In this document: positions 4,309-64,000 of the stretch, piece after piece
Position numbering within the stretch: position 1 is the first letter of the stretch
Layout of the letters: every line of letters starts with the position of its first letter
Assembly: GCA_963969365.1 (NCBI GenBank)
Contig: OZ017759.1
Coordinates: 806,001 to 870,000, forward strand
Source: Asterochloris sp. CNOR1
Lineage: Eukaryota > Chlorophyta > Trebouxiophyceae > Trebouxiales > Trebouxiaceae
Direction of reading: 5' to 3'
DNA: 64,000 bases
Made by a program: the position numbers and the translations under genes
Notes under the pieces: model-generated
Seen by the model: the letters and a program-made list of their open reading frames with translations, nothing else
The model's database searches: none
What the model was told of the DNA's origin: nothing

Positions 4309-7300
4309 CTGTGGCAGCAGACTCCTGTGCTTGCCCTGAGCTGGCAGAATCTGGCTGCTGAGCCAGCTGCTTGCTGCTGGAACGAGACAGGGAAGTGTTT
4401 GAGAGACTGAGGCGCGCCATCATGCTCCAGCGGCGCAGGGATTGCCTGCTCTGCTGTTTGGGGCTGCCAGGCGCCTGCAAACAAGCCTAGATGTGGGCAG
4501 GGTGCATCTGCAGTCTACCCACATTCACATTGTCCAGCAGCGCAGGAAGGCTCGGTCTGCGCCTTGGGGTCAGGTGCCCGCAATCAGCCCTTGTGCGAGT
4601 TCGCACGCGTGGGTGAGGTGGGCGTCTTGTTGAGCTGCAGCACAGATGCTGATGTGCAGGCACAACAACCCCGCAGACAGCCCACAGGGCTTACTCAAAA
4701 GGTCAGATAAGCAGCTCTCAAGCTTCCCAAGCAGCTGGCTTGCACCCAAAAAGCAGACTGCTCGACTGCTGTCTGCAGCCTTACACTGCACATGCGCCAA
4801 CAGATTCCAATAGATGCAGCAAGAGCCAAACAAGTGCCATCCCCCACAACATAAAGATGTGATACGCACGGATGACCCCCACCCAGAGCAAATACAAAAG
4901 AATAAGCACCTGAGCCGGCGCCACAGCATCCAGACTGCGTCTGCTTGTGCTCTTCCGAAGCTGCTGTGCCACGCTGCCCTTCACATGCAGGCCTCCCAGT
5001 ACCCCAGTGGCAGATCCAATGAAGCGCCCAGACTCGTCAACACGCAGCTGCACTTCGCCAGAGGTCTCCTGCAGGACACAGTATGCAAACTGGAGCAGGA
5101 GGCTGAAGTTCAAACATTGCCAGAGTAATCAATGCAGCTGCACCTCGCCAGAGGTCTCCTGCCAGCAAAATGATGGAAACGTGAACAGGTTGCTGTGTAG
5201 CTCCCTTCCTTGCCTGAAGTCAACCCCGACAGCCCCGACAGGCCATCAAGACAACGCCAGGCCTGCCCCAAGTCACTTCGAAAGTCTATGCGCCACAACC
5301 CATGAACATTGCGTTCAACTTGCTGCATCTCATGATGGCCACAGACGCTGGAGAGCCTTCGGCAACAGCTTGGAGAACCTTGCATAGAAGGCATGAACGC
5401 CTGTGTTCCAACCTGAATGGCACACACCTGAGGGATGACCTCCACGGCTGCAGTCTCACTCTCCAGAAAGCTCTGTGCCATCATATGGAGCTCCCAGGGG
5501 CCAGACAGGCACTCCAGTGTCAGCTTCTGCAGGCATCAACACACCCTTGAGCAACACTCATCACACTGCAAGAGCCATCCTGTGAAGCTCCCAGGGGCCA
5601 GAGAGGCAATCCAGTGTCAGCATCTGCAGGCATGAAACCAGCCTTGAGCAACGCCCATCATACTGCATGAGCTTCTGCAGGTGCTCGCCGAGCTCCCATA
5701 TGGATGCGAAATCCTGACTGCCAGCATGAGCGCAGCATCAGCACACGACCGGGCTGCAATGGAAGGGCACCCCAGAAGGACAGTGTCAGCCAGCTGCCTT
5801 GCGACAGAGCCCCCACACCTTTCATGCTCAATGCAGTGCCACAGCAGCTCATGAAGGCCAGTCTTGAGTGGCCTGCTGCTTTGCCCCGCAGCAGCCCCTC
5901 TCTCTGACTGCTCAGCCCTGAAACTCCTTTCCCTATTCCCCCTCTGAGAAGGAGGCTTCCAAAGGGCTCCCCTGCAGAAGGGGCTTGCATGGGCGCTGCC
6001 TAGGCTCGAACCCCAAAGCCCTGACTCTCAGCCTGCCACAGGAAGAGCCCCGGCAGCTGGCCAGGAGGCTCACTCACCTCCTCGCCGTCGCCTGAGAGGG
6101 GGCGCCCGCCCTGCAGGGACAGCTTCCGCAGCAGCTGCCGCGACTCGGATGCCATCCTGCGCAGGGGGCCCCCGCTGCTGCGCTTGGCCAGCTGCTGCTC
6201 CTGCTTGGCCATGAGGCGCCCATGGATGTCGTTGCCCACGACATTCCCCATGCTGCACGGCACAGCAGCGCCCCTCAGTTGCGCCAGAGGGGGGGGCAGC
6301 TCTTGCACAGGAGGCCCCCATGCCCCGGACACTGCCCATGCTGCACACCACAGCAGCGCTCTGGTGTCACAGAACTGGCTGCACTCACCTGCGGATGTCC
6401 AGGTTGTGCATCAGCAAACGCCGCCCATTCTGCAGCACAGAATGAACAACACCTCAGGCTGACACACCAGCAGCGACTGCTTGACGGCACACATCTTGTC
6501 ATGCAGCACGGCAAGCAACTGACATGATCGTAGACGCAGTTGTCAAGAAGTATGGTGGACGACTAACAACCATCGCAGTCCGAGCCTGGCTGCAGATCCA
6601 CAGGCCCCGCAGCTGCGCACAAAGCTTGTGCTGGCTGGTGCCAGGCCTGATCTCCTCGCTGGACGCCAGTCTGCAGCAGACACCGACACCGACCCAAGCC
6701 TTCCCTTGCGCAGGGCGCTGCCAGGCCTGACCACCTCACTAGCACCAGTCTGCAGCTTGGCAAACCAACGCAGCACAGACCTGGCAGCAGCACTTGCTGT
6801 CACTGACCTGAGCCTTGACTTGCACTGGCCGCTTTCAGACTTGCCTACTTTGCTGGCGCAGGCGTGGGGCTTGACAGGCCACCCCAGCACAGGCCTGGCA
6901 CAGAATGCACTGCCACAGGCCCAAGCCTCACCTTGCGCTGGCTCTTAGACCGGACCGCTTTGCTTGCGTCGGAGTGGGGCCTGACAGGCCATCCCAACAC
7001 CGGCCCCTGAGGCTGGCAGGCCCCCAGCTTGCGTGCTTTGATGACCCCCAGCACGCCCAACAGACTGGCTGCGCTCAAGCGCACCTCCTGGCAGCTCAGC
7101 AGCGGCTGCAGGGCACTTGGTGTTGGTTGGTTTGGCATCTTGTGCCCCATAGGAGAGCAGAGTCAGCACTCATCTATCTGTGCACTGCCAGGCAGCCCCC
7201 TGAGGAGGGTGCCGGGACGCATGTTCGCACTCTTTAGACATCCAGCGAGATGAACACCAGAGCACATCAGTTGGTGCTAGGCACAGCCAAGAACTGAGCC

Positions 7301-18243: not shown

Positions 18244-18375
18244 GTCAGCTTCTTTACAACAGCTGGCCGCCACCAACTCTCGATGACACCGACTGCCTGC
18301 ATGACAACAGCCAGTTTCCACCAATTAGGTCTGCTTTAGGTTTCTGCAAGAAGGATACTTGCAGATCGCCTCGGC

Positions 18376-21300
18376 ATGATGAACATGAATTTCCAGAGCC
18401 AGCAACTGCAGTCAGCGCAGCAGGCTCTGCATGCTCCATGCTGCTCAGCTCGCACACGCACGGCATGTGCGCACAGACATCAAAGATTTGCTTGCCACAG
18501 CTCCCAGCAGGGTGCTACAACTGCAGTGGTAACAGATGTAGCTATCCCTGAAGGCCACAAGGGGCTGCACCAGGCGCTTTATGGAGAGGGCAGCGAGGAG
18601 GCGCACTCTGCTGCGCAGTACGCGCTGAGAAAGGTCTGCTTGCGCTGTGACAGGTGCCACAGACTATCAGCTGGACTTCACCTCAAGCGGTGTCAAGCTT
18701 TCATGCAAGGATGGTCAGGCTTGCCTGATGGAACCAGCAGTGCTGCTCGCTGCAGCCTCACCTTGCTGCAATAGCCAGAAGCATTTTCATGCATGAGGGG
18801 CACTCCGATGCATGCACAGTCGTACGCTGTGCAAGACTTCCCTGCCTGCAGGGTCAGGTTGCGTGGTGCTCAGTTGCGTGACAGCACTACGTTGCCTGCA
18901 GCTGCAGTGCAGGTCTGCCTGAATGCAGGCTGCAGCGCTGGATGCAGGGAGCTGGAGAGGTTGTGCACTTGAGTAAGCGTGCAGGGACTGCACTCCACCT
19001 GGAACCTCCCCTGTGCAGTTCACTATGAACCTCCAAGCTGAATTGCTGAATGTGCATTGCCTGCAGGGAGAGGATGAGGGGCGCTCCCTGGTGCAAGTGA
19101 CAGAGTACATCCTGTCGCGAGATGGAGCCAAGCCTGTGGGCGTGTATGCGCTGTATGACAGCCAGCAGCAGCTGCAATACATTGGACTGGCCCGCAACAT
19201 GGTCCTGGCCATAAAGGTAAGCATCCCCCAGCTGTCAGCAGCAGGGCTTACACAGGTGCCCCTGCTTGAGCACAGAAGTCAGCATCCTGCAGTCATGAGC
19301 CAGCACAATGTTGCGCTGAGCCAGGACACAGCATAGCCACATGGCATGGGTTGCAGGCCCAAGTCATGCATGCACCCCTCATTGCACTACGCGATGCCCT
19401 CCCCATAGGCCAGGCCTACACTGAGCTCTGGCCACTTTATAGCTCAGTGTGGCCGCCCAAAAGGTCAATGAAGGCCTGCAACTCTGGTCGGTTGCATCTC
19501 ATCTGTTCTGTTCTGTTCTGAAAACCCCAGTCCTGTGGCCCTTACCCTGCATGCATACCTTTCGGCTCCGGGGCTCTGCGCCTTCATGCAGGCCAAGGTC
19601 TGTTCAACACAGCACTTGCACTGCTCAGCCTCCCCAGAGGCAGGGGCCCAGTCTGTGCGCCTTCATGCCAATTCTTCTGCGTTGCACAGTCCAAGCTGAG
19701 AGCTGCTCATGCTCTGTAGGGGCACCTCACGCGTGTGGGACCTGAGCTTTGTGCTTATGTAAGGGCCAAGGTCTTCACTGACAGAGCCCTGACATCTCGC
19801 ACCAACCTGGATGCCCAGAGGCAAGCCTGGATCAAGGAGGCAGGCTTCACACCAGCGGGCAATGCTCAGGACCAGGCTTTCTGGGAGGTGAGCCCTGCCT
19901 GGTGTTCGTCAGCATTGTCACATCTGGTATCATCAACCCCCCTCGTGGTGGGTTGTCGCCACCATCTGACAACACGGTGCACCACCTGAGAAAAGCATCA
20001 GTGTGATGCACCACAACGGGTGTTGCCTGTCATTGCAGGAAACATGCTGTGCACGGGCTGCACAAGCTCTGTCAGCACTGCTCTCGCAGGCAGCTGCTTC
20101 AGGGCTGACAAGCAACAGTAGGCTGCTGAGGGGCTAGGCATGTGGAGAAGCATGGATAAATGCAGAGACAGTTGCTTGTGCAATGCTGCGCAACACTCAG
20201 GGGCTCTCGCCGAGGTCGAGCGTGCTTGGTGTGAGGCCATGCTTATCCACTGGGGCAGACAAGAGACGCTCTGTGCGGCTCAGCGGCCCGCTCAAAATTG
20301 CTCTTGTGATCAGCGTTCAAGTCTGGTTGAGTGGCAGTCTTGGCAGCCTGGCAGAGTACAAAGCAGGGCTCTCTGGCCAATTTGGTGTACTGATCTGGCC
20401 CCACAGTCTGGCTGTGTGCCTGCAGGTGTCAGGCAGCAACCTCATCCCCCAGGCCTGACACCTGCAGGCACACAGCCAGAGCCCCATACCTGCTGCCCCT
20501 GCACTGCGGTTGCAGCAATGAATGGTGTTCATGTCTTGGAGGCCTCCTGCTTGCTGCAGGTGTCAGGCAGCAAGGTCATGTCCCAGGCTGAGAGGGAGGA
20601 GTACGAGGACAAGCGTCTTAAAATGAGGAAAGCCATGGGGGACAAGCTGCATGATGAGGCCGCGGCAGCAGAAGTGTCAGGTGGGCTGCTGCACTGCTTA
20701 CGTTTGAGTGTACAGGGCCATGGGGGACAGACAATGCCAATGCAGAGGTGTGACATGCGCTGCTGCACCTGCGCACCCATCTGAAGCCTATGCCAAAACC
20801 TGCACAAGCCCATGCGGGAGAAGCTGCACGCCGAGGCTGCCTCAGCAGAGCCCTCAGGTGGGCTGCTGCGCTGTTTCCCTATGACCACGCAGGTCAGAGG
20901 CTGCTGGTGCAGCCTAGTCCTGTCATGAGGGCACCCACGGCATCTCAAAACCCTCTGGGGCCGCGGCCTTGTCAGCTTGGCTGCTGTAGCTCCTCTCCCT
21001 GTGCAGGCGACCAGCGGCGCCAGAACATGATTGACGCTCTCAGCAAGGATGACTGGAGTGCAGTTATTGAGCAGCAGACCGAGCAGACACTAGGCTCTGG
21101 CGCTGCTGCTGCAAATGGAGCACCACAGGCAAGTCCGTCGATGTCCTGTGGGGGCCAGCTTAGAACACAGCCCTGTGAGTCTAGCCAATCACTGCCGCTT
21201 GGGTTTGCGGTGCACTCCAAAGGTGGCCAAAGCAAAGGCCATGAACCAGTTGGCAAATGCGGGTGGTATGCTTGATGTGCCTCTGCACTGGTGCTTCAGT

Positions 21301-23299
21301 CAATGCCACTGTCTCTGTGCAGAGCCAGCTTAGGTGCGGGCCTTCCCTGACCCGCTTTTAAGGACTTCGGTGCACCTACTGGCTGACACATGCTCAGGCT
21401 ATCGTTCATCAGCTTACATCACCTCTTCCTGCTCAGGCAACAGGGAAAGGCAGCACAACCCTCTTATGCGAGCAGCTCAGCAGATGACAGCACCCTCTCC
21501 CCCTGCAGATTCCTGCAGACACTGCGACGACCAGCGGGCAGGGTAGTGCAGTGCAGCCGCAGCCGGCCATCACCAGCCCCTTTGCATCTTCAGGGGCCCA
21601 GGATGCCGCAGGTGGGGCTGCATAAACAACCTCACTGTCTCCTGCAGTGGTGGGCAGCTGTGCTGCTGAGGCCAGATGCTTTGTGCCGCATGCCAAGGGG
21701 GACATCAATCAGGCATCACGTGGCAGCTGTAGGACTCCTGCATCTGAATCCACCAGAGCACGGCTGCCTGCCTGCATCCTGCAGCTGCGCCTGTTTCCAT
21801 GGGCTGCACCCCCAGAATGACAGTCTCTGATGAACTGCCACATGCGGGACGCCTGCATTGCTGCTGTGACTCTGTGCCCTTGTGTCCTGCGGGGGCACCT
21901 GCCTTCTCTCGGCAGCACCCCGGAGACAATACTTGACCCGGTCTTCGCTGCCCTGCCTACAAGCTGCAGCTCCTATGTGACCCTGAGAGCTGAAACCGGA
22001 CCAACTTGTTATCAGTCTCTGGCTGCTGCAGATGCGCCTGCTTCCATGGGCAGCGCCCCAGAGATGACAGTGGAGTCAGTGGACGCGGCTCTGGATAAGG
22101 TGCGCCCCTACCTAATAGCCGACGGCGGCAATGTCGGGGTGGTGGACGTGAGCAAAGGCATTGTGGAGCTGCAGCTGCAGGTGGGCATGAGTGAAGTGCT
22201 GTTCAATACGTAATCATCAAGTTGAACTTCAGCAAACATTGCTGTGACTGCATGCCTATGCCCGTTCCCTGCGTGGCAGGCATTTCACCTGCATGGCTGT
22301 GCCTGCCTGGCAGGTGGCTGCTCTCCCGGCCTGGCGTTTGCAGGGCCTCACACCAAGCTGCAGCTGCAAGTGGGCAGACTTGTACAGTGCTGCTGGTGCC
22401 CTGCCGCACTGATTGCCTTGCTGCTGTGGCTGGCCACCTGGCCTGGCAGTGCCTGCATGGCAGTGCATGCAGCTAGCAACTGTGCCTGATCACTCTGCCT
22501 CCTGATCTCAGGCCTGCTAGTCACAAGCCTTGCATGCTGGCTTCTAGGTGTGCTGGCAAAACAGTTGCGCAAGTTGAGCTGTTTGCCAGCACCATGCCGT
22601 GTTGCAGGCAGTATCTGTTTGTCTGAAAGGAGGGCTTCTGGTGCAGGGGGCCTGTGGGACTTGTGCAGCATCATCGGCCACGATGAAGGAAGGCATTGAG
22701 CGCTGCCTGGAGGTGCGTGCACTCATCACAGCAGCTGCTCACTGACTGTGGCATGCTGGATGCCTGCTGACAGTTGCTCACAAACCAGCCGCACTTCCGC
22801 CATCAGCCTCAGTGAAAGCGGTATATGGATGCCGCTGCGCGCCGGCTGCAGCCCTTGCTCCAGTGTGGCATGCTGGTGTTGATGCCAGCCTTGACCTGGG
22901 TGCTGCACACGTGTAACAGCAGCCGCCTCAGGGCTCGACTGAGGGACGCTGCTGTGCAGCCTGCCAAGTAGCAGGCTCTTGCAGCACGCTGCCTATGGGC
23001 AGCCTGATTTGTGCGCCCTGAGCTGTCTTCGCTGCCTGCAGGGCGTGTTTGGGAGCAGCCTGAAGGGTGTGGTGCAGTCAGGCGGGGGTCAGGACAACTC
23101 CGCCTCAAAGGGCCGCGTAAATACCCATCTGGATATGCTGCGTCCAGCCATCCATTCGTATGGGGGCAAGGTTGATGTGCTCTCAGTGGAGGCTGGCAAA
23201 TGCATAGTTCACTTTGAGGGGCCCCCGCCCATTGGTGAAGGTATCAAGGCAGCCATCAAAGATAAATTCCCGGACCTCCAAGCTGTGGAGCTGGTGTAG
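18376..23299 (+). CDS. NFU: NFU-type iron-sulfur scaffold with GIY-YIG-like N-terminal domain (plastid)
   Basis: Nine exons join in phase: 18376-18633, 19067-19216, 19720-19887, 20560-20680, 21007-21128, 21509-21611, 22032-22180, 22647-22712 and 23042-23299 (TAG). The N-terminus (MMNMNFQSQQLQSAQQAL, Arg/Ser-rich, few acids) fits a plastid transit peptide. Next is a GIY-YIG-like segment (GVYALYDSQQQLQYIGLARN). A helical linker follows (QAEREEYEDKRLKMRKAMGD), then a complete NifU C-terminal domain (VRPYLIADGGNVGVVDV, then QGACGTCAASSATMKEGIE) with the CxxC that holds the Fe-S cluster. The last exon is a second, degenerate NFU domain (LDMLRPAIHSYGGKVDVL) without CxxC, as in plastid NFU proteins of plants. 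These proteins pass 4Fe-4S clusters to photosystem I and other targets. The intron after 21128 starts GCAAGT. Three introns carry decayed copies of exon edges. Confidence 0.9.
20785..20885 (+). repeat. Decayed copy of NFU exon 20560-20680 3' end with donor
   Basis: PMREKLHAEAASAEPS followed by GGTGGGCTGCTGC copies the true exon end AMGDKLHDEAAAAEVS followed by the same donor bases, about 180 bp downstream of it. The copy is still open and spliceable in principle. Confidence 0.85.
21770..21965 (+). repeat. Two decayed copies of acceptor and start of NFU exon 22032-22180
   Basis: The true exon begins CTGCAG then DAPASMGSAPEMTVESV. Copy 1 (from 21774) keeps the acceptor and reads APVSMGCTPRMTVS. 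Copy 2 (from 21893) reads LGSTPETILDPVFAAL. Spacing is about 120-140 bp. Confidence 0.85.
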
Positions 23300-29500: not shown

Positions 29501-30734
29501 TGACCAGGGGGGCAGACTGGCTCGCTGCCTCACAGCCAGACAGAAGCAGCAACTTGACAACTGAGGTGCACTGCAGGTCAAGCAAAAGGATCTCCAATGG
29601 CTGCCTGCACAGTGACAGGCGAGAGAGGCCACTGCAGTTGAGCAGAGCAGCATCCTGTGCAACGCCTGCACAGTGATGAGAGAGACAGGCTGCATCTGCT
29701 GCAGTTGAGCAGAAGCATCCAGTGCAATGCCTGCACAAAGGTCAGCGAGAGAGCCTGGGACTGCTGCATTTGAGCAGCGGAGCGGGATGCAATGGGATGC
29801 CTGCACAGCAACAAGCAGGAGTCTATGCAGCTCTGCTGCATGTCATAAGCCTCACTACTCAGGTGGTACCTGCATTGTGGCCATGTGCTTGGCAATGTGC
29901 CGCAACTGCTGAGATTTCTGCCCCAAAAGACACTGACATCAGTTGCCCATCAACAACAAACAGGGGTGTCCGAGGCCTTGATGCCACCCACCTGGGCTGC
30001 TGCCAAATCTTGCTGCACCTCAGCAGGGAACTCTGCTGCTCTGGCACCTGATGCAGGAGCTTTTGAGGGTGCATCACAGTCTCGAAGCCTCTGCAGCACA
30101 GCTTCAGGGTAGACCAGATGTTGCAGCACATCCTGCAAGAAGTCGTGAAGAGGTCTGGCGGGTGGCAGGGCTGCTTGGCAAATGTGCTCCAGTTCAATGG
30201 TGTATGCATGGTGGCTGATGCCCCACCTCCTGAGTGTCAGTTGAGCTGATGCTGAGAACCACAGAATGGTGCAGCAATGAGAGACTCAAGCTGACAGCAG
30301 GGCACATCGCACCAGTGCATGCCTCCCCTGCTGACCCATCCATCTTATGTGGTTGTAGGTGTGATGGGGCCAGCAGAGCTCGTCCACTTTCTGCCGCAGC
30401 TGCCTGTCCACCTGTCACAGCAAGCCACTGTGAATGTCACAGAGACATGCGGCTGGCAGGCAGCGCTGCCAAGTGCACTCACCAAATGGCGTTGAGAGTA
30501 CATGCCGTGCCAATCAGCTTGGGAGGTCAACATTTCTCTGCATCCTTCATTCCAATTGCGCCACCGCTGGAGGCTGAGCAGCTCCCAGGCTGATGCTGAG
30601 GCCACCACATCCCGGAGCAATTTATTCACCTGGGCCAGGCTGCACAATGATTGCAGATCCAGCAGGCACGATATGTGGGTGCTCAACAAGGACACCGGCA
30701 CATCTGTCAGTGTCGCTTCTGCACTGTCCGACAT
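23513..30734 (-). CDS. FBXO21-like protein: F-box, SirB1/transglutaminase-like and YccV (hemimethylated-DNA-binding-like) domains
   Basis: Exon 1 (30734-30483) starts MSDSAEATLTDVPVSLLS with an F-box (SLCSLAQVNKLLRDVVASA). Later exons give a SirB1-type region: LRVLNALLF near 28600; 27949-27811 NTANYYDLANSLLPCVF and GLGIPISLAVIYVAVGRR; 26982-26883 GLPGHVVAQL and IFIDVFDQGR; 26423-26310; 26071-25918; 25560-25334. The YccV domain follows in 24680-24604 (FRIGTVMTHRRYDYL), 24259-24182 (GVITDWDPQCKASDQW), 23989-23958 (RHQPFYHVL), 23872-23825 (STYVAQ), 23730-23692 (ENIVPVEGPGPFK) and 23599-23513 (RYQLNAYMKHRFPQN, stop). Every join from 27949 to the stop is in phase. The order matches animal and plant FBXO21, an SCF substrate receptor. 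The catalytic Cys of true transglutaminases is not evident, as in SirB1 proteins. The intron after 23825 starts GCAAGT. Exons between 30336 and 28560 are approximate, and the join into 27949 is out of phase, so a small exon is missing. Confidence 0.88.
24780..24975. repeat. Two-copy tandem repeat (about 92 bp) in FBXO21-like intron
   Basis: The sequence around GTGCCTGCCAGTATGGCCTC is repeated as GTGCCTCCCGTGTGGCCCCC, and the downstream AGCAGGCAGCAAAGG parts also match. The repeat lies in the intron between exons 25560-25334 and 24680-24604. Confidence 0.6.
29585..29820 (-). repeat. Four-copy tandem repeat (about 68 bp) with acceptor-like ends in FBXO21-like intron
   Basis: Units contain GCCTGCACAGTGA and CTGCAGTTGAGCAGA. 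On the minus strand each carries CACTGTGCAGGC, the same acceptor found directly before the coding stretch near 29500, so these appear to be upstream copies of that exon edge. Confidence 0.75.
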
Positions 30735-44800: not shown

Positions 44801-46850
44801 CTTCAGGCGCCGTGAGTGCCTTCTGCCCCATTGGCCCAGGTCTTCAGCTGACATCGTGCCCATGGCGCACATGAAGTCGTTGCTGCAAAAATACCTCTGA
44901 AAATTGTCTACAGCCGACTGGCTTGCACAGCAGCAGCCCAGTTGACACCCCGTAGCAGCTGCTCTGTCAGGGTCATCAGGTGCCCACGCACTCTGCACAG
45001 AGACCCACCTGCCCAGGCAGCAGCTCAGGGGCAACTGCCACTTCCACAGAGCCATCTCCCTCCTGGTTCGATGCCTTGGAATCCTCATTGGAGTCACGGG
45101 TGGTGTCGACCTGCAGAACAAGCAGGGCACAGATGTGGGCAAGTCAGCATGGCGGGTCATGCCAGGCTCCATGCCTTTGAGAGGCCATGCTGGGTGGAGG
45201 GGAAGGCACCAGGCTGCAAAGCCGCTTCAGGGCTGCAACCTTTCAGAGGCCGCCAGGCAGCCTGATCCTAGGCAGGGAAGAGCTGTTGCAGTTGCAAAAC
45301 AGTGAAATCACGACTGCCATCTCGCACCTGCCTGCTGCAAAGTGACCCCAAGAACAGGAACAATGAACAGATGATGGAAAGGCACAGAGCATGATCCCGG
45401 GGACAATTGGGATCTGCAGCCTATGTCACAGCTTGCCTGCCAGAATGCAGGCCCAAGACGCGGGGCATCTGACAGGCATCCCATCCTACTGCAGCCTCAA
45501 CCTGTCAGCCAGGCCTGCCGCTGACATTCGATCAAGTCAAGCCCAGATTGCGGGTATTACATCCTGTTGCAGACTCCGACCTGTGCCGTGCCTGCTGTTG
45601 GGGTTCATGTCAGCCAGCCTACGCTGATGCAGGCACTGAGCACACCTCCAACTCTGCAGTCCCACCTCATCAGGTCGTTTCCCAGAGCCTGCGCCCAGTC
45701 TGCGTAGTGACATCGGGTCATGGGCTAGTCTTTTTGTGCATCAGACAGGGTCAGTTCCCAGGCATGGCCCTTGACGACCAGGCAAGGGGCGATGCATGAA
45801 CGTGGGCAGCCTGCCTGTCACAGGTGCTTCCTCAATAGCATTATATGTATACAGACGGTGTATTTACCTGAACGACTGCAACCTCCTCATCGTCAGAGCT
45901 GCTTTCTCCAGCGGCCACGTCAGTGTTGTTGGCACCCAGGTTGTCGGCATCCTGCTGGCACTCCTCATCAGGGCCACAACTGTTGACCAAGGCTGTTTCC
46001 TCAGCCACAAAGCCCCAGCGGTCCTCAGCATCTGAATCCTCTGCACCTGTGGGGCAGGGTAGCAGTCAGAGAGCTACTGAAGGTTTGTGGCGCTTGCGCA
46101 GCCACAAAGCCCCTGCAGTCTCTTGAGTAAGGGTCTCCTGAACATCTGCACAGCAAAATGGCAGACGGAGCGGCTGACAATGGGTTGGTGTGACCGTCAG
46201 CCCCAGCGGTCCTGTACAAGCGAGTCATCCGCAACTGCTTAGCAAGATGGCAGTCAGCGCTGCTGCCAGACTACTGACAACCCCTCACCGCACCAGAGCC
46301 CTGTGCATGCAGGGCAGGGCAGCAGTCGACAAAGTTGTTTTGGCGTAGCCACAAAGTGCAGCAGTCCCCATCATCTGAGAGTCCGGCTCTTCAGGGCACT
46401 CCTGCAGGGTGGCGGAGCAGGCAAGGATGCAGACGCTGGAAATGGCAGAGCCACAATACAGGTGCTGCCAATGCTGCTGAAGGCAGCACTGCTGTTATGT
46501 CTACAGTCTAGGAGGCTGCTGACAGCAGGAGGGAGGTGCAGGCATTGCCGCTGTCAGTGCACCATCACGGGCCAGTCCCCCATACAACACACACACACAC
46601 ACAGGGATCGGAACTCTGTTGGGAGCAACAGGCCTGTCCTTGTGGCCTTCATACAATGTAGTGCCACAGCAGGCCTCGCGCCCACCTGACTCCTCTGCAT
46701 CTGGGTCCTCTGCACCTGAGTCCTCTGCATCTGAGCCCTCTGCCTTTGAGTCTTCAGCATCTGAGCCAACCTGCACCCATCCCATGAGTATTCTGAGATG
46801 TCCTGCAACGTGGCTGGATTCTCTACCATCCTCATCCCGCAGAAGGCTTA
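41801..46850 (-). CDS. Acidic protein of unknown function
   Basis: A series of minus-strand exons reads consistently. About 46790-46690 is an acidic repeat (GSDAEDS three times, with KAE, GAE and DPDAEES variations). About 46040-45870 reads AEDSDAEDRWGFVAEETA. About 45115-45005 reads GDGSVEVAVAPELLPGQ. About 44898-44760 reads NDFMCAMGTMSAEDLGQW. About 44270-44135 reads GNEVAVDVAAELLPEA. About 43570-43440 reads DESTIYGSYNTITGKVDLKG. About 43255-43150 reads NNWQLVTHFLCLSESLPG. About 43050-42935 reads RIAVSELCSKLINTCKLP. About 42300-42135 reads EQLEPDLEDHYNRLQSL. The last exon 41902-41801 reads SDPYLIWQRHGDDPAG and ends in TAG. The N-terminal half looks disordered and acidic, the C-terminal half folded and helical. 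I recognise no family; an acidic N-terminus would suit a nuclear or chromatin protein, but that is only a guess. Exon borders other than the last are approximate, and the 5' end is not fixed. Confidence 0.55.
43738..43882. repeat. Three-copy 51-bp tandem repeat
   Basis: The unit has the core GAGCCTGCCTGCATTGATGG and GTGGGGCCATGAAG. Copies begin near 43745, 43798 and 43852 and differ at few bases, so this array is young. It lies in an intron of the acidic protein gene. Confidence 0.9.
46588..46603. repeat. (CA)n microsatellite
   Basis: Eight CA dinucleotides in a row inside an intron of the acidic protein gene. Confidence 0.95.
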
Positions 46851-47879: not shown

Positions 47880-50800
47880 ACCTGCTGCACCCTCTCCCTC
47901 AGAGACGACACCTTGGCCTCCAGATTGGCCTGCCGTTCTTCAGACTCTGCCTTCAGCTTCTCACACTCGTCAAGTAGCTCAGCCTGCCGTTCTTTTGAGT
48001 CCTCCTCCAGCATCCCATAGTCGTCTTGCAGCTCCTCAAATTCATCCCGCAGGTCCTCGAACTCGTCCTGCAGCTCCTCATGGTCTGCCAGCAGCTGGCT
48101 GTGCTCAGCAGCCTGCCTCTCCAGCTCCAGCCCCAAGTCTGCCTGCAGCTGCTGGCGCTCAGTAGCCTGCTGCTCCAATTGACGGCGCAGGTGAGCCTGC
48201 TGGGCCTCTGAGCCTGCCAGAGCAGCCTGCAGCAGGGGCACAGCAGCCTCTGGAGCCTGACCTCTGCGGCAGTGTGCAGCCGCCTATCCAGCAGCTTGCT
48301 GGATCAGTTGTTGGACCTGTTCTCCCTGCTGGGCCTCTGAGGCAGACGGCAGGCTGTGATGTCCAACAGGCTGTCTGATTTCTGAAGGAGCCTGCAGGTG
48401 CTCATGGCCTGCCCACAGCTTCCAGTGAGCCTGTGATGCGGCCTTGAAAGAGCCCAGACGGGGAGCAGCTCCTTTTGCTCAAGGCGCTAGGTGTGCAAGT
48501 CAGCCGGTACCTCCTCAGGGGGGGCCACTGTACCTTGGCTGTATGTTGTGGCAATGCAGCTCTGCCTCTTGGCTGATCAGGCAGCGGGCAGCTGCTCGGC
48601 AGCACCTGCGACTCGTCCTGCTCATGTGGGCTGTGTCATGCCAACACAGCTATGCCTGCTTGGCCAATGAGGCAGCCTGCAGCTGCTCAGCGGGACCCTA
48701 CAGATTGAGTCCCTCATCTTGGCCTGCGCCGTTGGGCAACATGGCTCAACATGGTCGGCCACTGCGGCAGCCTGCAATTGCTCAACGGTGCTGTGACACC
48801 CCACTAACCTGCTCCTGCTCCAATTGGTGGACCAGAACTGCCTGCTTGGCCTCTGACGCAGCCTTCAGCTCGATGTCGTCTGCCTGCAGCACAGACAACT
48901 GGGGCCATTGTGCCATGCATAACATGATGCAAAGTCTGCATAGAGAGCCTGCAACGTATCATGCACGTCAGCAATGCAAAGCCAGCAAGCACGGCTGTTG
49001 AAGACCAAGCATGTCACATTGCTGAGGTGGCGAGCACGCGTGTCAAAGCGCGCACCTCCCGCTGATTTTCAAAATGCTGCACAGCAGCCTGGTGGGCCAC
49101 GTCTTTGGCCTTCAAAGCTGCCTGCAGATGGACAGGGGTATCCTGAGGCAGCCGCCATGTGACACGAGACATCAGCACAGTGACATGGTCACAGATGGGC
49201 CAGATGTTTGCCAGGAACAGTAGCTTGGACCTGCAGCAGAAGCTGACCTCAGCCTAGCAAGCAGACTGCACTCAGACAGGGTCTGCCAGAAGCTGCCATC
49301 ATGTCAAAACTTACAGTAACAGCAGGCTCTGGGGCTGCAGCCCAAAGCCTGAAGGTGCCTGGTGGGGCAGATGCCCGGCCTTCTTGGCAACCTGCAGGCC
49401 AACATGGTCCAAAGGCGGCCGGCACGCAGGTTCTGCAGCTGCTTGGCTTGCTGTGTTGCAACCAACTCCAGACTGGCCCACAGGTGCTCCGCGCTGACCT
49501 GCATCAGAGCCTGACAAAGCCGCCATCCGGAACGCTCGCACATTGTTCTCTGACTCATGCCCGACAATCCCAGCAGCAAGCAGCCTACTGCACTGTGGGC
49601 CTCAGCGCTTCCTGTGTTGGCACCCACCCTCTACAGACCCTCCCACCCTGGCAGCCCAAGTCAAGAGCACTGTGTCTATGAAACCATGAGTTGGCCTGGC
49701 GGCCTCTGCATTACCCCAGACCCGCTTGATCCTCCTGTGCACACCTGGGCCTGCTCCAGATGGAGCACCAGGTCAGCCTGCTCCCCCTTCTGCAGCTCGG
49801 CCGCCGCCTTCAGCTCCTGCACGTCCGCCAGGGCGCCCTGCAGTTTCTTGTCCAAGTCCTGCTTCTGCAGCTCCTCTGCACGCAGCTGTCGCTGCACTGT
49901 GTCCAGCTGGCGCTGCACGGAGGAGGCAGCTGTGGAGCCACTGGCAGCCACTACCTGCAGTGTGTGGGGGGCTGGTTGCAAACTGGCAAGGAGCATGGGT
50001 CTGCACATCCTCTGTGTGCAGCCGGCTCTGTGCAGGGGAGGCGGCCGCCACCTGCAGTCCAAAAGCTGCTGTGGGGTTTTGAGATGCAGTGCTTATACAG
50101 CACATTACGGACAGGGAGCAGCTTTCCTGCTGCATCGTGTCCTGCTGGCACTGCATGGGGGAGGCAGCGTGAGCGGCCACCACCTGCCGCAGTGCAGGGC
50201 CCATTTGTGAAGTGCCAGCAAGTCTTGCAGGAAGCAAGGTGTTGTTGCCAATCCTGCATACACAGCCCCCAACATAGTACGAGTGCCCACGAATGGTCAC
50301 TCACATGGTCCAGAGCTGAGTGCCACACACAAAATAGGCGCCCTTACACACCAGACAGCCCCCACCCGCCTGCGTACAGCCACCTCATTTATGCCGTATC
50401 CGCAAAACGGCTTCCCCAGTCAAGCCCCAAAGCCACCACACCCCAGTGATTGTTCCCAACTGCTTGCGTACAGCCACCTTATGCATGCCGCTTTCTCCTC
50501 TGAGACAGCACGCTCCACTGTTAAGCCCCAAAGCCACCTGCTTTGGTGATGGCCCCACCTGCTTGCGCACTGCCTCTAACTCCCTCCGCAGCATCTTGTT
50601 CAGCGTCTCTAAGTCAGAGATGTGCCGGTGGTCGGTTTCCTGCATATCTTGAGCCTGCAGGCACCCACAGTGCACAGTGACTGGGGCAAAAAGGACAGAT
50701 GCCTGCCTGTCGGCTTTGACATGTGCTCAAACGTCTGGTCAGTGCTTGAATGAGTCGTCTGCACAGTGAGCACAGCACCTGGCATGCAGTGCTGGCTAAG

Positions 50801-55816: not shown

Positions 55817-58800
55817 GTCAATGTGCAGCCTCGCAGCAATGCAGGTGCGCCGGCTGGCAGCATATCAAACTTCTCAAGAAATCTGGGCCTGATTGCTGCT
55901 GGCCCAGACGCCAACCCGGGTAATACAAGCGCCTTGGGGCTGGCAACCCTTGGGTCTGCCGATGGCAAACCTCAGGCATTCTCAGTCGGAGCAGGCTTGC
56001 TGGGAAGTAGCGTCCCCAGCCCTGCGCAGGATGCAGCTGCATCGAGTATCTCTCTGAAGGTCACATTGGAAAATGGCGATGCGCCAGCAGCAGAGGGCAG
56101 CTCTGCCACACCAGGTGAGCGCGCCAGGCACCTTTGCATGTTGTGTTCCTTGATGGTGTAACGAGCTGGTAGCCGGGCCCAGCAGCAGAAGCACTGTGCA
56201 TCATTGGCAGCTGCATCTGTAGCTCCTGTCCCCGTGCGCCGCATTCCGCCACAGCCAGCAAACATCATTGCCAGACCTGCAGTGCCGCAGCAGAAGCGGC
56301 AGATTGGCTGTCCAGGGCAGCATAGCCCTGCATGTGGCACCGCTGTGTTGATTGGGGCGCAAAGGAGGCAGCAACACTTTTGCCTGCGGTGCTGGAGGCC
56401 CGCCAGGCCGTCTGAGGAGGACAGCACCAGGTGCAGTATGCTTGGGTGTGCACAGCTGACTGCCTTCTGGACGTGCAGTGCGAGATAGGCAGCACCAGCC
56501 CCGGCTGTCCAAGCAGCAGAGCACAGCTGCAGGGTCCAATCCCTCGCTGTGGACAAAGCTGGGTCTGGCTGATGAGGAGCAGGCAGACTCCTCACCCCTG
56601 GTGTACGATGCGCGCTTCCATGGGCCGTCCAGTGCAAGCCGTGAGTAAGTTGGCTGTCAACGCCGGCACCTTGCTCAACTAATGCTTCCTGCAGTTGAAA
56701 CGCCACCTGTCTCGCTTACAGTGGTCACTGGGTCCCAGTTAACGTGCAATGCAGTACCTGCAGGCCTGCAATGCAAGCTGTGGGTTTGACCACTTGGCTG
56801 GCTGTGCCGGATGGGCTTGTCATAGCCTCAGCTTTTATGTGCCAAGCCTACAGGAGCCTACCGCCATGGTGGCCACAGTTTGTTGCTTGAGCATTTAAGC
56901 TACTGATTGCATAAGCGCTGGCCCGTCCTGTACCCTCTGGCGCAGCTGGCAACGCAGACAATTAGCTTGCTGCATGAGGTCCAGGGGATGTTGGCTGTCG
57001 CAGCATCGCCCGCGCCTGCACCCTGGCTGGCAAACTGGGGTGCCTGCACTGCAGGTACCAGGACTGGGTGGGAGGTGTGCTCATCACTCTGGTCTGGGTC
57101 CTGGTGCTGCTGCTCTTCCTCTGGACGCTGGTGCGCGGGGAGCCCCTGTGGCTGCAGCACCCAGCCAACACAGCGCAGCAGCTGTGTGGCACTGCCAGCA
57201 ACACAGCCCAGCTGCCTTATCTGTTCTGGCCCAGCTACACAGCCACAGGGCAATCATACTGCGTGTCGGCGTGCCCTACCAGCACAGGTGAAGCCTGCAG
57301 CTTGACTCAGCGGGCTGCTGGAACCAGGCAATGCAGTGAGGCCTGCAACAACAGCCGTGAGGTTCAACCCTCTGGGATCAAGCTGTTCCTGTAGGACTGA
57401 TGGTCCGTCAGAGCTGAGGAACACATGGAATGCTTAGTGCAAGGGTCCCACACCCTGATGCCTGTGGCCTGTTGCAACATGCAGTCAACCTGAAGCACAG
57501 CCAGCAACTTCGACACCCTCTGTGCTCCTGCAGGCAGCTTATGTGTCAACAGCACAAGCTACCTTGAAACAACAGATGGCAGCTGCAGCACCTCCGTAGC
57601 AACCTATGCCAGTCAGCAGTATATGGGCTACTGCCTACCCCAGAACACCAGCAGTGCTGCCTGGGCAGCCCTTAGCCCCACAGTGGGCAATGCCAAGGTG
57701 GATTGGTCCATTTCTGCACTCATCGGCGCCCCAGAGAGCTGCCCTGATGCGTGCTGTGCTTGACTGGTGATGCTGCAGACTGGCACCAGCGCATGGCAGC
57801 CACAACAATGGCAGATCAGCACCTGCTCCGCAGCTGGCAGCTGCCAGCATGAGCTGAGCTGCGCTGCTCATGTAGATGATGCAAACTTGAATGTCATGCT
57901 GATGTGATCTGGATTGTGTTTTCCCTTGTCTGCCGCTGGTCATGCTAGGCGACAGAAAGCAGGCCCTACAAATCCTTGGTTGGCCCCTGCTGACAGTGGT
58001 TCCCAGTGCAGCTATCATTGCGCTACCCTGCCTGCTGCAGACATTGTGAAGGAGTAAGTACACGGGCCCAGCCTGAGCCATGCAGCCCCGTTGCTGCAGT
58101 CTATCGGCTCAGCCCATGCCCTACGTGCTGCTGGCCACTCTGAAGGTCATGTTGGAACATTGGTAGCCCACAGGGCGGTGGTGTCAGCAATGCCGGTGGC
58201 CGCTCTGCCAGCTGCACACACCTTCATACAGGAGCCCCAGCCCCTTAGCCAACCCATGTCTCCTGTCTGCTGCAGACCATTGTGAAGGTTATGCTGGGGG
58301 ACGCGTGGCAGGCGTGGTGGGTGGTGCTGTCGGGGACAGCGGTGGCAGTCCTGCTGGGCGTCCTGGCACAGGCCATCCTGGCCCAGGAGGCTCGCGCCTT
58401 CATGCCCATCTCTGCACTGGGAGGGCTGGGCTTCCTCGTGCTGCTGGGGTGCATCATACTGTTCCAAGGTGGGCCACTGCTCCAAGGCAGGCCACTTTCC
58501 CAAGGCAGGCCGTTGTGCTTGGGGCAGGCCGCGGTGCTTGGGGCAGGCGACTGTTCCAAGGCAGGCCGCTGTGCTGGGGGCAGGCTGCTGTGATGCGCTG
58601 CACTGCTTGCTTGGCACTGCGTCAGCATCATCTGCCAAGCTGCGCAGGTGCAGGTGGCAGACTCATGACTTGTCTTGTGATGAATGCTGCATTGGGAGGG
58701 CTGGGCTTCATCGTGCGGCGGGATTGCATCATCCTTCTCAACATCAGCCCCGGCGCTGGAACACAGCATACAGCAAACTGTTGCTGGGCACAGCGTCAGC

Positions 58801-61800
58801 ATTGCCTGCCAAGCTGGGCTGTTGCTGGTGGAGGCACTCTCTTGAGCCTGTCACTGCACTGGCAGGATGGGCCGCCTGACGCTGCTGGGTGCATTACACT
58901 GTCTCAGTGTCCCAAGATGGCCCACTGACGCAGGCATGCTGGCCTGTGATGCTGACCAATACACAGTGTGCTGTTCAGCCTGACACTTCATAGACATGCA
59001 CCAATGCGTGGGCATGGTCCTGCTGAAGCTGCAAGTCATCACTGGTCGCAGCCTGCAGAGCTGCCGAGCAGGCTTGAGGATTGAGGCGCACCATGCAGCT
59101 CCTTGCAGGACACTGCCACATGGAGTTGTAGAGTGCAATCTCCCTGCCTGTCAATGGTCTTCCATGTAATGCTTGCCACTGACTACACAGCCCTGATAAC
59201 GACACGCCAGGTGGCAGCGCCCTGCCTGTATGCCTTCTCAGTGTGCAGCAAGCAGCCAGGCCTGCTTGCTGGCAGGCAACCAGGACAGCGCTGCCATTAC
59301 TGGCTTCATAGACCTGAGAGCGATTTGCAGCACCCAAGTCCACAGCGCCCTGCCTGCTTGTGCTCTCAGCGCACAATGGGCAGCCCAGCCCACAGCCCTG
59401 CAGGCAGCCAGCACGCTGCTGCCCACACTGATCAAACAGCCCACAGTACATCCAAGCAGGAGGCGTTCTCAATTCACAGCGCCTTGTCTGCCCAAGCTCT
59501 CAGTGCATAACAGACAGCCCAGCCCACAGCTCTGCAGGTGGTGGGGACAATGCCGGCCCCACTGATCACACAGCTCCCAGTGCATACGATCAGATGGCGA
59601 CATCTCAATTACAATGCCTGCAAGCTTTCAGTACACAACAAGTAGCCCAGCCCAGTGCCTTGCAGGTGGCCAGGACAACGCTGCCCCAACTGTCTACACC
59701 GCCCTGAAGGCTATCCGCGACATCAGGGAATTTGCATTTGCCCTGGGCCTGACCCTGATGGGCTGTGCCGGCCTGCTGTTGCTGAGCAGCTGCCTGCGCC
59801 TGATGTCTGGGCAGCTCTGGCGGGGCGCCAAGCTGCTCAACTGCGCTGTGGCAGTGGTTGGGGAGCTTCACTACGTCATGGTGCTGCCATGTGTGGCCTG
59901 CGCCCTGCTGGTGGTGCTTGGCGTCTTTGCCTACTGCATCGGTGAGGCCCTGTTGTCTGATGATAGGCCACGTATGTGTGTGTTTGCTGAACTGCCTCTG
60001 CCAGGTGCCCGCATTCAGAAGCCCCAGGCTGATGGGGCCACCCAGCAAGTGCAGGGCAGCAAGCCATGGAGTCTGCGTCCTAGTGCTTCACTGCATCGCT
60101 GCCCTGCAGATGGTGTGCAGGTCTTCTGCATGCTGCACCATTGTGCCTGTTTCTGCCATCAGGCTGGAAGGTACATCCACATCCTGGGGTGCCTGTGCCA
60201 GGTGCCCACATGAAGTTGATCCCAGTCCACATTGCACATGTGGGCATGGGCTCAGCGGTGCACCTTGTGAGCCCAGATGTTCCTGTCTTAGTGCCATGCG
60301 TGGCCTGTCTTGGTGCCATGCGTGGCCTGCGCCCCATACGTGTGGTATGCGTGCCGAGGGCCCAAGTCTGCAAGGGCATGACAACAGGACTGGCATGGAT
60401 TGCAGCATGTTGCCTGGCGGCCTGAAGCCTGCTGCTGCACCTGTCTGCAACTGGATGCCAGGCCAGGCGGCGCATAGGCACCTCCTGCTGTACAGTGCCC
60501 TGTTTCTTGCTGCCCACTCCCACCCCATGTTCGCCATTGCGTGTGCACTGTGCAGCTGACACCTGCCCTGCTGCCTGCAGCCACCCCATGTTTGCCGTGC
60601 AAGTGCACTGCCTACTCAGCTCACAGCAGGCCTGCCTTACTGTGCAGCCCAATCACCCCTGCCCTGATGCCTGCAGCCATCCGCATGTTTGCCATGCAAG
60701 TGCGCTACCGAGCAGCTGACGGGGGCCCCACCTTCGTGCACTTCCTGTGGCTGCTGACGCCCATCCATGCCTTCGGCGTCCTCTGGCTGGCTGCCTGGGT
60801 CCTGGCCACCATGCGCCTGACGGTCGCCATCGTGGTTGCCATATGGTGTGTCCCTGGCATCCTCTGCAACCCCAACATCATCATGCAACATTGACGAAAC
60901 TTTGGGTCCTGAAGGGCATCATTTGCAATCACCTCTGCGTATGACAGCCCACAGGCCTGCCAGAAGCCATCATGGCTGACATCTGTTGACTCAGACAGAG
61001 GGAGGTCAGTGCCAAGCACATTACTCTGCTGCAGCCCCAAGATCAGGGCCAGCAACCTCCTACTCAGCAAGCAGGACAAGGCTTTTTGAGCTTGACTGCT
61101 TATCCTCTGAATGCGTGCCATGCCGGCTCATTTGTATCAGGCACCCCCTCTGCCTGCAGGCTTTGCTGCTGGAGTGGAGCGGCGCTTGACATCCACTTTC
61201 TCTCTGTTGGTGCTGTGCTCCAGAGCCCAAAGTTGAAGACACTGCAGTGCAAGGCACGTGAGTGTGTGCGGTATCCCCACATTGCATGTTCCTCTGCAGG
61301 TACTGGACTCCAGAGCCCAAGGACGACAAGATCGAGGCCCTCGTAGTGCCAGTAGCGCTGATGCAGGCGCTGCAGTTCCATGGCAGCAGCCTGGCCTTGT
61401 GTTCGCTCGTGTTCAGCCTCCTGATGCCGCTGAGGGTGAGCGCAGCCAGCCTGCCTGCGCGGTCACACTCTGCCTGCCTGCATGGGATGCACCTGTTCTG
61501 CCATGCCCAGGAACTGCTGCACCCAGTGTAATAGCCCTGCTATGCCATTGTGAAGCAGTGAACCCTATCAATCATCCAAATGCACATGGTGCACCCCATT
61601 TTGTAGCCGTGCTGCTGTGCAGTGGGTCGTCAACATCCTGCCAGCCAGCTGGATCCCCCCAGCTGTGAGGGTCAAGGTCCCTCACTTCAGCTGCACAGCC
61701 TATGCACAGATGGCGCTGCATGGCTACAGCATGGGGGAGTCTGTCACAAAGGCGGCGCAGCTGGCCCAGCGCCACAGGCAGAGGATGGCCGCCTGCTCGG

Positions 61801-62946: not shown

Positions 62947-63736
62947 TCAGCCGCTGCCACCCCTGCGAGAGGCGCGCCGAACTTCCTCGCTGTCCAGCAG
63001 TTGCCGTGCGCCCTTGGCCCAGGCGGCCTTGGCCTCTGGCACCACAGTGCTGCCCCCAAGGTACACCTCGAACAGGGCGCGGCACATTCCAGGGGAGTCT
63101 ATCCTCAGGTCAGGCTCCGCCTGCAGGCCGGTCAATAAAGTGGTGGCAACCTTTGACGGGCTGGTCCTTGCAAGCCTGATCTTGCACTGGTTGCCAACAC
63201 TGACAGCGTAACCACACTCAGAGCAGCTGCTGGCAGGCTGGGGTGTGCAGCTGCAAGAGTAGCGCTCTGAGGTAGCATGTGCTGTCAGGCGGCCCCCTAC
63301 TGCTGACAAGCTTCATTTTGCTAAGGTCAGACTCAGTCATCCTGGATGCAGTTGATGTCCCCAGTCTGCGCTGTCTTGACTACCAGGGCTTCTGCTGCTG
63401 CTAGGCAACAGGACAAGACAGCCTGTCGGACAGGCTCATTTAGGAGTGACAGCCGGACAAGTTCAACTCCACTGTTGCTGTCAGATGGACCACACAATAT
63501 GCCCCATAGGTCAATCAGCTGTAGGAGTCAGGCTGCTCAAGTCTGGCAGGGCTCACCCTGGCATAGCTGTCCCCAGCCTGCCCAGCCTTGACGTCTAGGC
63601 GCCCGCTGGGATTCCACAGCAGCACAACGTCGCTGCCCTTCTCCAGGGTTCTGCCCTCAAAGAATTGCTTGAACTTGTTCAGCTTTGCTGTCTCCCCTGA
63701 CAATTGCAGGCGGGGCGCCAGAGCCTCCTCGATGGC
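62947..63736 (-). CDS. Chalcone-isomerase-fold protein, likely fatty-acid-binding/CHI-like type (5' truncated by window)
   Basis: Exon 63736-63557 is 60 codons in phase (AIEEALAPRLQLSGETAKL, then NKFKQFFEGRTLEKGSDVVL) and ends AGR-type at a GTGAGC donor. The last exon, about 63205-62947, reads TTLLTGLQAEPDLRID, SPGMCRALFEVYLGGSTVVP and EAKAAWAKGARQLL, then stop. FKxxFxGxxLxKGS followed by CxALFxVYLGxxxVxPxAK is the pattern of the chalcone isomerase fold. Algae usually lack true flavonoid CHI, so a plastid fatty-acid-binding (FAP) or CHI-like role is more likely; the catalytic residues cannot be checked because the upstream half is outside the window. A middle exon near 63380-63340 (VVKTAQTGDINCIQ) is possible. 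A short exon near 63915 may precede it. Confidence 0.65.
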
Positions 63737-63754
63737 CTGCAGTCCAAAACATCT

Positions 63755-63835
63755 GGAAGCTTGCTCAGCCTGGCTGTCTCCGCAGACAGCTGCAGGGCGG
63801 GGGCCTGAGGCCCCTCGGTTGCCTGCAGCTCAGAG
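63755..63835 (-). repeat. Decayed copy of acceptor and start of CHI-fold exon 63736-63557
   Basis: The minus strand reads ATEGPQAPALQLSAETARLS after a CTGCAG, against the true AIEEALAPRLQLSGETAKLN about 90 bp downstream. Confidence 0.85.
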
Positions 63836-64000
63836 GGTTTTGCTTGGAGGGGGGGAACAGCAGGTGGCGGCCAGATGGCACCTGCCTGGCTAACCTTCAG
63901 AAATCATGGCTGCACTTGCAGCGTTGCAACAACCCCCTTATGAGCAAAGAACAGAATCAGCATGCAGCGTGTGATGTTCAATTGCACACTGTTATAGGCA

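What the first reader, a model, noticed from the sequence alone, without database searches (positions are those of the whole stretch)
4309..63836. Introns in many genes contain rows of decayed copies of the neighbouring exon edge
In seven genes (F-box, NFU, FBXO21-like, PHT4, SLC44, CHI-fold and probably the acidic protein gene), introns hold 1-4 tandem, degenerate copies that span an exon-intron boundary. Acceptor-side copies sit upstream of the true exon and donor-side copies sit downstream. Units are about 70-180 bp and decay rises with distance from the exon. Tandem duplication is a known route to intron gain, but systematic boundary-spanning arrays in most introns would be a distinct mode of intron growth. 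Inference: replication slippage or repair near splice-site-rich CTGCAG motifs repeatedly duplicates exon edges, leaving decoy splice sites.
Basis: partly seen in the sequence, partly recalled or inferred. Interest (0 to 1): 0.9.

Follow-up and report, generated by a model that had tools for sequence, protein, structure and literature searches.

The report
Fossil exon-edge duplications inside algal introns
In this green-alga genome about one exon edge in ten has a decayed copy of itself in the adjoining intron, most likely the remains of old tandem duplications of roughly 100 bases that spanned splice sites and survived because splicing removes the extra copy.

Summary
In 264 kb (window plus four 50-kb samples), 64 of 562 exon edges match their own adjoining intron at Smith-Waterman score 28 or more; controls: 11 of 3,372 other-intron pieces, 2 of 546 wrong-side introns, 2 of 562 reverse complements, 3 of 167 exon middles. 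A fifth sample with everything frozen gave 7 of 111 against 3 of 666. Copies show no coding constraint and keep AG or GT about half the time: neutral decay. Best reading: tandem duplications (units mostly 60-280 bp) filtered by selection, not splice-site targeting. Simulated old, uniformly placed duplications come close to the edge:other ratio (1.0 against 1.32), because the exon half decays more slowly. 'Most introns' is too strong: 59 of 255 hold a detectable array. CTGCAG is the commonest hexamer, but no hotspot was shown. Unexpected: of 73 arrays aligned over 40 bp or more, one reaches 90% identity and none 95%, where simulated constant birth predicts 31-58% at 90%. This suggests a past wave. 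Erosion of the intron half is stronger than simple models predict. No related genome could be compared.

The parts
5477..5672 (-).
   Evidence: 86% over 99 bp; intron side also homologous, z 10.9; sequence read
5044..5195 (-). Same gene: acceptor copy of exon 4910-5068, period 90
   Evidence: 77% over 62 bp; exon part 96% over 25
6233..6359 (-). Same gene: acceptor copy of exon 6078-6252, period 88
   Evidence: 85% over 39 bp; not among the copies scoring 28 or more
6687..7005 (-). Same gene: array of period 114 reaching the donor of predicted exon 6932-7105, an exon below my reliability cut
   Evidence: 70% over 209 columns
20420..20588 (+). Acceptor copy of exon 20560-20680 in the predicted gene that also holds the NFU exons, period 134, CTGCAG kept in the copy
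   Evidence: 89% over 35 bp
20633..20884 (+). Donor copy of the same exon, period 177, GTGGGC kept in the copy
   Evidence: 77% over 75 bp
21779..22071 (+). NFU gene: acceptor copy of exon 22032-22180, distance 247, CTGCAG kept, intron side not homologous
   Evidence: 87% over 47 columns; z -0.8; sequence read
24758..24969 (-). FBXO21-like gene: intron-internal array, period 93
   Evidence: 74% over 125 columns
29603..29807 (-). FBXO21-like gene region: non-exonic array, period 61
   Evidence: 75% over 146 columns
38724..39108 (-). PHT4-like transporter gene: three copies in a row of the acceptor edge of exon 38557-38778, at 111, 224 and 322 bp upstream
   Evidence: exon edge agrees with Trebouxia and Myrmecia proteins
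38072..38281 (-). PHT4-like gene: acceptor copy of exon 37919-38117, distance 160
   Evidence: 84% over 50 bp; a Trebouxia PHT4-like protein also aligns to the intronic copy, 38278-38099, E 2.7e-4; no intron homology, z -1.3
45868..46385 (-). Acidic-protein gene: weak acceptor-edge matches of exon 45868-46040 at 97, 188 and 343 bp
   Evidence: scores 34, 30, 33; weak, low-complexity coding sequence
49882..50168 (-). Coiled-coil gene: acceptor copy of exon 49745-49912, distance 236-238
   Evidence: 82% over 51 bp
58412..58920 (+). SLC44-like gene: donor-edge copies of exon 58276-58468 at 275 and 440 bp downstream; intron homology resumes beyond a junction-like minisatellite
   Evidence: 86% over 49 bp; z 6.5 when displaced homology is allowed; sequence read
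59341..59692 (+). SLC44-like gene: array of period 134 reaching the start of exon 59666-59941
   Evidence: 72% over 226 columns; counted as edge
60490..60709 (+). SLC44-like gene: two acceptor copies of exon 60677-60845 at 97 and 158 bp
   Evidence: 83% over 71 bp; sequence read
63674..63828 (-). CHI-fold gene: acceptor copy of exon 63557-63736, period 86
   Evidence: 78% over 69 bp; the HMM called this the first exon, so this edge was not in the acceptor count

Best explanation
These are remains of ordinary tandem duplications, units mostly 60-280 bp, placed without much regard to gene structure. When a duplicated unit contains an acceptor, the upstream copy falls into the intron; when it contains a donor, the downstream copy does; the protein is unchanged if the outer splice site is ignored. 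Units inside exons are purged. The copy then decays as neutral DNA, but its exon partner is held by purifying selection, so exon-edge pairs stay recognisable longer than intron-intron pairs and dominate what can still be seen. Most visible duplications are old (53 of 67 pairs at 70-84% identity), so the process ran as a past wave or has slowed sharply. Shown: excess, direction, direct orientation, neutral decay of copies, shortage of young arrays in the samples. Inferred: uniform placement, correct use of the outer splice site, the wave, the DNA-level cause (slippage or repair of adjacent nicks).
For: Edge matches concentrate in the adjoining intron in direct orientation; wrong-side and reverse-complement matches stay at control level (replicated). 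1 of 89 arrays has both copies in exons, 10 expected. Copies differ from the exon at codon positions 1, 2, 3 by 130/894, 117/888, 175/876, so they show no coding constraint, and the extra at position 3 fits synonymous change in the exon. Splice dinucleotides intact in 16 of 31 acceptor copies and 13 of 24 donor copies, about what neutral decay at 73-75% identity predicts (55 of 78 copies passed its filters). In 11 arrays with both parts alignable, exon part 325/387 identical, intron part 461/584. Simulated old uniform duplications (t 0.15-0.5) give edge:other 0.79-1.0 and 1% at 90% identity or more; constant birth gives about 0.5 and 31-58%; observed 1.32 and 1 of 67. Two intron stretches searched in the genome gave only themselves.
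Against: The intron half of edge copies is eroded more than simple models predict. Of 43 copies that could be tested (of 78), 12 have z above 2.5 and 26 z below 1.5 even when displaced homology is allowed; old-wave simulations give 40-66% and 23-47% at indel ratios 0.1-0.2, and only a ratio of 0.4 comes close, with 30-44% and 39-58%. In the first version of this test 6 of the 8 strongest copies lacked intron homology against 8% simulated; with displaced homology 3 of 8 still show none. Gapless identity falls to near random within about 12-18 bp on the intron side. Observed edge:other (1.32) is above every simulated value. Simulated rates, indel lengths and age ranges were my assumptions, and the erosion simulations used acceptors only. 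No orthologous introns, transcripts or population data were available.
Confidence: 0.75

Rival explanations
1. Exon-edge-limited copying: a process that copies the exon edge plus the splice-site hexamer but not the intron beyond it, for example transcription- or splicing-linked repair.
For: Loss of identity within about 12-18 bp on the intron side; 26 of 43 testable copies with z below 1.5; strong copies such as exon 22032 (92%, CTGCAG kept) with z -0.8; 6 of 8 strongest without homology at the expected place against 8% simulated.
Against: 12 of 43 copies do carry intron homology, among them 4 of the 8 strongest, with a fifth at z 2.4; the SLC44 donor case is explained by a minisatellite lying between exon and homologous intron; an old wave with many indels comes close to the pattern.
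Confidence: 0.1
2. Tandem duplication at a steady rate; young arrays are missing from the samples by chance, by assembly collapse or because identical repeats are quickly deleted.
For: Short-period arrays (12-50 bp) include young ones, 19 of 48 at 95% match or more; pairs aligned over less than 40 bp, left out of the age count, include a few at 95-96% such as C2 34706-34795; an assembly may collapse identical 100-bp repeats.
Against: 1 of 73 arrays at 90% identity or more, where simulated constant birth predicts 31-58%. Deletion or purging of young identical copies cannot cause the gap: by my algebra it raises the ratio of young to old arrays.
Confidence: 0.12
3. CTGCAG-mediated duplication: microhomology at the acceptor-like motif sets the unit ends.
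For: Array ends lie within 6 bp of CTGCAG 10.4% of the time against 5.4%; 180 of 297 acceptors end in CTGCAG.
Against: CTGCAG is about as abundant as its 5-mers predict (1,024 against 975); alignment ends at conserved splice sites create this association without any mechanism; donor-side copies are as common as acceptor-side ones (31 of 277 against 33 of 285).
Confidence: 0.05
4. The copies are functional alternative splice sites or exon extensions kept by selection.
For: Some copies keep a full CTGCAG or GTGAGC; one copy in C5 is open in frame with its exon (read by eye).
Against: Splice dinucleotides intact in only 29 of 55 copies; distance is a multiple of 3 in 12 of 32 acceptor copies and 7 of 25 donor copies, no excess; codon positions 1 and 2 diverge almost as much as 3.
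Confidence: 0.02
5. Chance similarity in GC-rich, CAG/CTG-rich sequence, or unmerged alleles.
For: Low-complexity composition.
Against: Other-intron pieces of the same composition match about 35-fold less often; reverse-complement and wrong-side introns are near zero; copies sit mostly 60-300 bp apart on one contig at 65-92% identity, not as kilobase-long near-identical blocks.
Confidence: 0.01

Closest known systems
[quoted passage not shown] PMC4974935, passages seen)
   Same: A tandem duplication spans an intron-exon boundary; the same gene also holds an 83-bp tandem duplication inside its first intron.
   Different: There one young duplication made a new intron; here many old duplications appear to enlarge existing introns and leave the protein unchanged.
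Rogers AGGT model of intron gain by exonic tandem duplication (as described in PMC3443670 and PMC4974935, passages)
   Same: Tandem duplication within a gene.
   Different: That model duplicates exonic sequence only and makes both splice sites from it; here the pre-existing splice dinucleotide is in register beside the copied exon edge in 29 of 55 copies.
Ubiquitous internal gene duplication, Gao and Lynch 2009 (seen only as cited in PMC3443670 and PMC4974935; the paper itself is not held)
   Same: Segmental duplications inside genes, some with whole introns.
   Different: Decayed exon-edge relics, their frequency per edge and their age distribution are what is measured here; I could not check whether that paper counted such relics.
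Introners (PMC9860276, title and start of abstract seen in the listing)
   Same: Mass change of introns.
   Different: Introners are copies of an element inserted in many genes; the two intron stretches tested here have no second copy in the genome.
About 100-bp tandem duplications after paired nicks in plants (Schiml, Fauser and Puchta 2016; recalled, not read)
   Same: Unit size and direct orientation fit.
   Different: No breakpoint in this data is young enough to test the mechanism.

Membership tests
Internal tandem duplication | Copies close together, direct, on the same strand | tested here: met
   73 direct pairs of 40 bits or more within 600 bp, 0 inverted within 2 kb
Internal tandem duplication | Unit includes sequence on both sides of the splice site | tested here: inconclusive
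   Intron-side homology in 12 of 43 testable copies, absent or eroded in the rest; splice dinucleotide kept in 29 of 55
Rogers AGGT intron gain | The unit is purely exonic and supplies both splice sites | tested here: inconclusive
   29 of 55 copies keep the pre-existing splice dinucleotide in register, which speaks against it for those; the Rogers layout itself was not searched for
Introner | Dispersed similar copies in many introns | tested here: not met
   Two intron stretches searched genome-wide (of about 500 predicted introns), only self matches; the tool calls its counts lower bounds
Active minisatellite | Near-identical copies | tested here: not met
   0 of 67 arrays aligned over 40 bp or more reach 95% identity
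Alternative splice site or exon | Splice signal and frame conserved in the copy | tested here: not met
Intron growth by duplication as shown by orthologues | Orthologous intron lacks the copy | not testable with these tools
   No related nuclear genome is held (one search states that G000 has no relatives here)

The most novel reading that the evidence does not exclude
A lineage-specific, now largely finished wave of roughly 100-bp tandem duplication supplied a sizeable part of intron DNA in a green alga of the Trebouxia-Asterochloris group (very roughly 9-38% of non-exonic sequence, by my arithmetic on the detection rates). Exon-edge copies are its built-in clock: one partner is fixed by selection, so each copy gives a nearly one-lineage, direction-known record of neutral change since the wave.
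Probability: 0.4. Interest if true: 0.7.

Novelty: new variant of a known kind. Interest (0 to 1): 0.55.

Why it matters
What sets intron length outside transposon-rich genomes is an open question. Here a single countable process, tandem duplication tolerated only where splicing hides it, leaves detectable marks in 59 of 255 introns. The exon-edge copies provide matched neutral and constrained halves of one event, so duplication rates, decay rates and the spectrum of intron mutation can be measured within one genome. An apparent pause in long-unit duplication, if it holds genome-wide, would tie intron growth to an episode in the lineage's history of DNA repair or replication.

Tried and rejected
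Unsupervised training of the gene finder drifted and merged genes; replaced by a seeded, two-strand HMM. A first exon-edge test on 151 strong exons gave 15 of 150 acceptor and 15 of 144 donor edges at score 32 or more and none in any control; superseded. Early tests that took copy age from exon identity or looked only at the expected place suggested that intron halves could not be eroded by decay: 27 of 43 with z below 1 against a simulated mean z of 18.6, and 6 of the 8 strongest without homology against 8% simulated. Allowing displaced homology and an old age range weakened that claim without removing it. Copying from spliced mRNA was set aside because many copies keep the splice hexamer. 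Functional alternative exons were set aside on codon and frame evidence. Dispersed repeats were not found for two intron stretches. Rfam (gathering cut-off) and tRNA scans of the window were empty. Eight paper searches listed work on intron gain by tandem duplication; no listed title or abstract start reported a genome-wide count of exon-edge relics. The library lacks most subscription journals and I saw only listings and passages, so this does not show that no such report exists.

Full report
Setting. The window is G000:C14:806001-870000 of a 56.4-Mb, 21-contig genome with 58% GC. Asterochloris glomerata has a 56-Mb genome with on average 9 introns per gene, mean gene 4,240 bp and mRNA 1,400 bp (PMC6652019, passages), broadly in line with my gene models (502 introns, mean 364 bp). 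That the genome is Asterochloris or a close relative is an inference.

Repeats. Self-BLAST of the window and of four 50-kb samples taken at round coordinates shows 73 direct pairs of 40 bits or more within 600 bp, 26 of them in the window, and no inverted pair within 2 kb. Periods are most often 90-99 bp and mostly between 60 and 280. Direct pairs further apart than 1 kb number 14, 11 of them in the C6 sample.

Gene models. A two-strand HMM trained on the sequence itself gave exons with donors like CAG|GTGAGC and acceptors like CTGCAG|G. Pfam supports MFS_1, NifU, YccV-like with Transglut_core2 and, below the curated cut-offs, Chalcone_2 and Choline_transpo; an SLC44 search found one relative at E 1e-40 or better, a Myrmecia choline-transporter-like protein. 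Exon edges of the PHT4 and SLC44 genes agree with tblastn of proteins from related algae; the Trebouxia protein also aligned to an intronic copy at 38278-38099 (E 2.7e-4).

Exon-edge test. For 310 reliable exons the first or last 60 nt were aligned to the adjoining intron. Score 28 or more: acceptor 33 of 285, donor 31 of 277. Controls: random other-intron pieces 5 of 1,710 and 6 of 1,662; reverse complement 2 of 285 and 0 of 277; intron on the wrong side 2 of 275 and 0 of 271; exon middles 2 of 85 and 1 of 82. With model and threshold frozen, the C10 sample gave 4 of 56 and 3 of 55 against 0 of 336 and 3 of 330; wrong side 0 of 110, reverse complement 0 of 111. The rate there is lower but the direction holds. 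Together 71 of 673 edges (10.5%).

What the copies look like. One search lists 78 copies at 64 edges; 11 edges have more than one and the nearest scores best in 9 of them. Divergence from the exon by codon position is 130/894, 117/888 and 175/876; 207 transitions and 215 transversions; 32 gaps in 2,658 columns. AG is intact in 16 of 31 acceptor copies and GT in 13 of 24 donor copies that passed the filters. This is what neutral decay of the copy with some synonymous change in the exon would give; there is no sign of selection for or against decoy sites.

Placement. Of 89 non-redundant arrays of 34 bits or more, 50 pair exon with non-exonic sequence (24.7 expected at random positions), 32 lie in introns (41.8), 6 outside genes (12.5) and 1 has both copies in exons (10.0). 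Simulated uniform duplications, with exon-internal and whole-exon units removed, give edge:other about 0.5 when ages run evenly from 0 to 0.5 substitutions per site, 0.54-0.98 for 0.1-0.3 and 0.79-1.0 for 0.15-0.5; observed 50:38. The edge excess is therefore mostly what slower decay of the constrained half produces. A modest additional preference for edges is not excluded.

Intron side. For 43 of the 78 copies the intron next to the splice site could be compared between copy and original, allowing displaced homology: 12 have z above 2.5, 26 below 1.5. For 22 acceptor copies aligned up to the edge, gapless identity is 0.88 at exon positions 1-6, 0.70 in the hexamer, 0.48 at -7 to -12 and 0.30-0.36 beyond; 11 donor copies behave alike. 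Old-wave simulations have z below 1.5 in 23-47% of cases at indel ratios of 0.1-0.2 and in 39-58% at 0.4. So strong erosion of the intron half is needed. At the SLC44 donor 58468 a cause is visible: a minisatellite resembling the junction separates the exon from intron sequence that is still homologous. This remains the weakest point of the tandem-duplication reading.

Age. Among 67 arrays aligned over 40 bp or more, identities fall at 65-69 (6), 70-74 (16), 75-79 (22), 80-84 (15), 85-89 (7) and 90-94 (1); none reaches 95%. C10 adds six at 74-83%. Pairs with shorter alignments were left out; a few of those are 95-96% identical over 21-26 bp. Exact tandem duplications were seen only with periods of 22-39 bp (4 in 264 kb). 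Simulated constant birth predicts 31-58% at 90% or more.

Extent. 59 of 255 introns between reliable neighbouring exons hold an array (23%); median length 585 bp with and 396 bp without, partly because longer introns offer more room; arrays cover 5.1% of non-exonic bases. Dividing observed arrays by simulated detection rates gives very roughly 9-38% of non-exonic sequence made by the process; this is my arithmetic with a mean unit of about 120 bp and depends on assumed rates. Regions differ: 25 arrays in the 64-kb window, 18, 15, 26 and 5 in the samples, 7 in C10.

CTGCAG. It ends 180 of 297 acceptors and is the commonest 6-mer, but a 4th-order Markov model already predicts 975 of the 1,024 seen. 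No role in duplication is shown.

Comparison. Tandem duplication is described as a route of intron gain, with a boundary-crossing case in potato (PMC4974935, passages; PMC3443670, passages). Here it seems to lengthen existing introns, leaves proteins unchanged and is countable across genes. I class it as a new variant of a known kind.

Noticed in passing
window 58461-58600: An 18-19 bp minisatellite whose unit resembles the exon-intron junction of the SLC44-like gene (CCAAG|GTGGGCCACTG), so a donor site seems to have been amplified in place.
   Followed up: partly
window and samples: CTGCAG is the commonest 6-mer (1,024 in 264 kb, about 11-14 times the mononucleotide expectation per region) although its 5-mers already predict 975; the TGCA-rich composition itself is unexplained.
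   Followed up: partly
G000:C2 sample, 39742-39839 and 39948-40043: Two exon-like copies 206 bp apart at 87% identity, a candidate tandem exon duplication.
   Followed up: no
G000:C6:500001-550000: Few arrays (5 in 50 kb), 11 direct matches 4-16 kb apart and a 601-bp tandem repeat with predicted exons; perhaps a local gene cluster.
   Followed up: no
window 48028-48080 and 51036-51125: Coiled-coil gene with in-frame internal repeats (periods 21 and 42 bp), the kind of exon-internal duplication that is tolerated.
   Followed up: no
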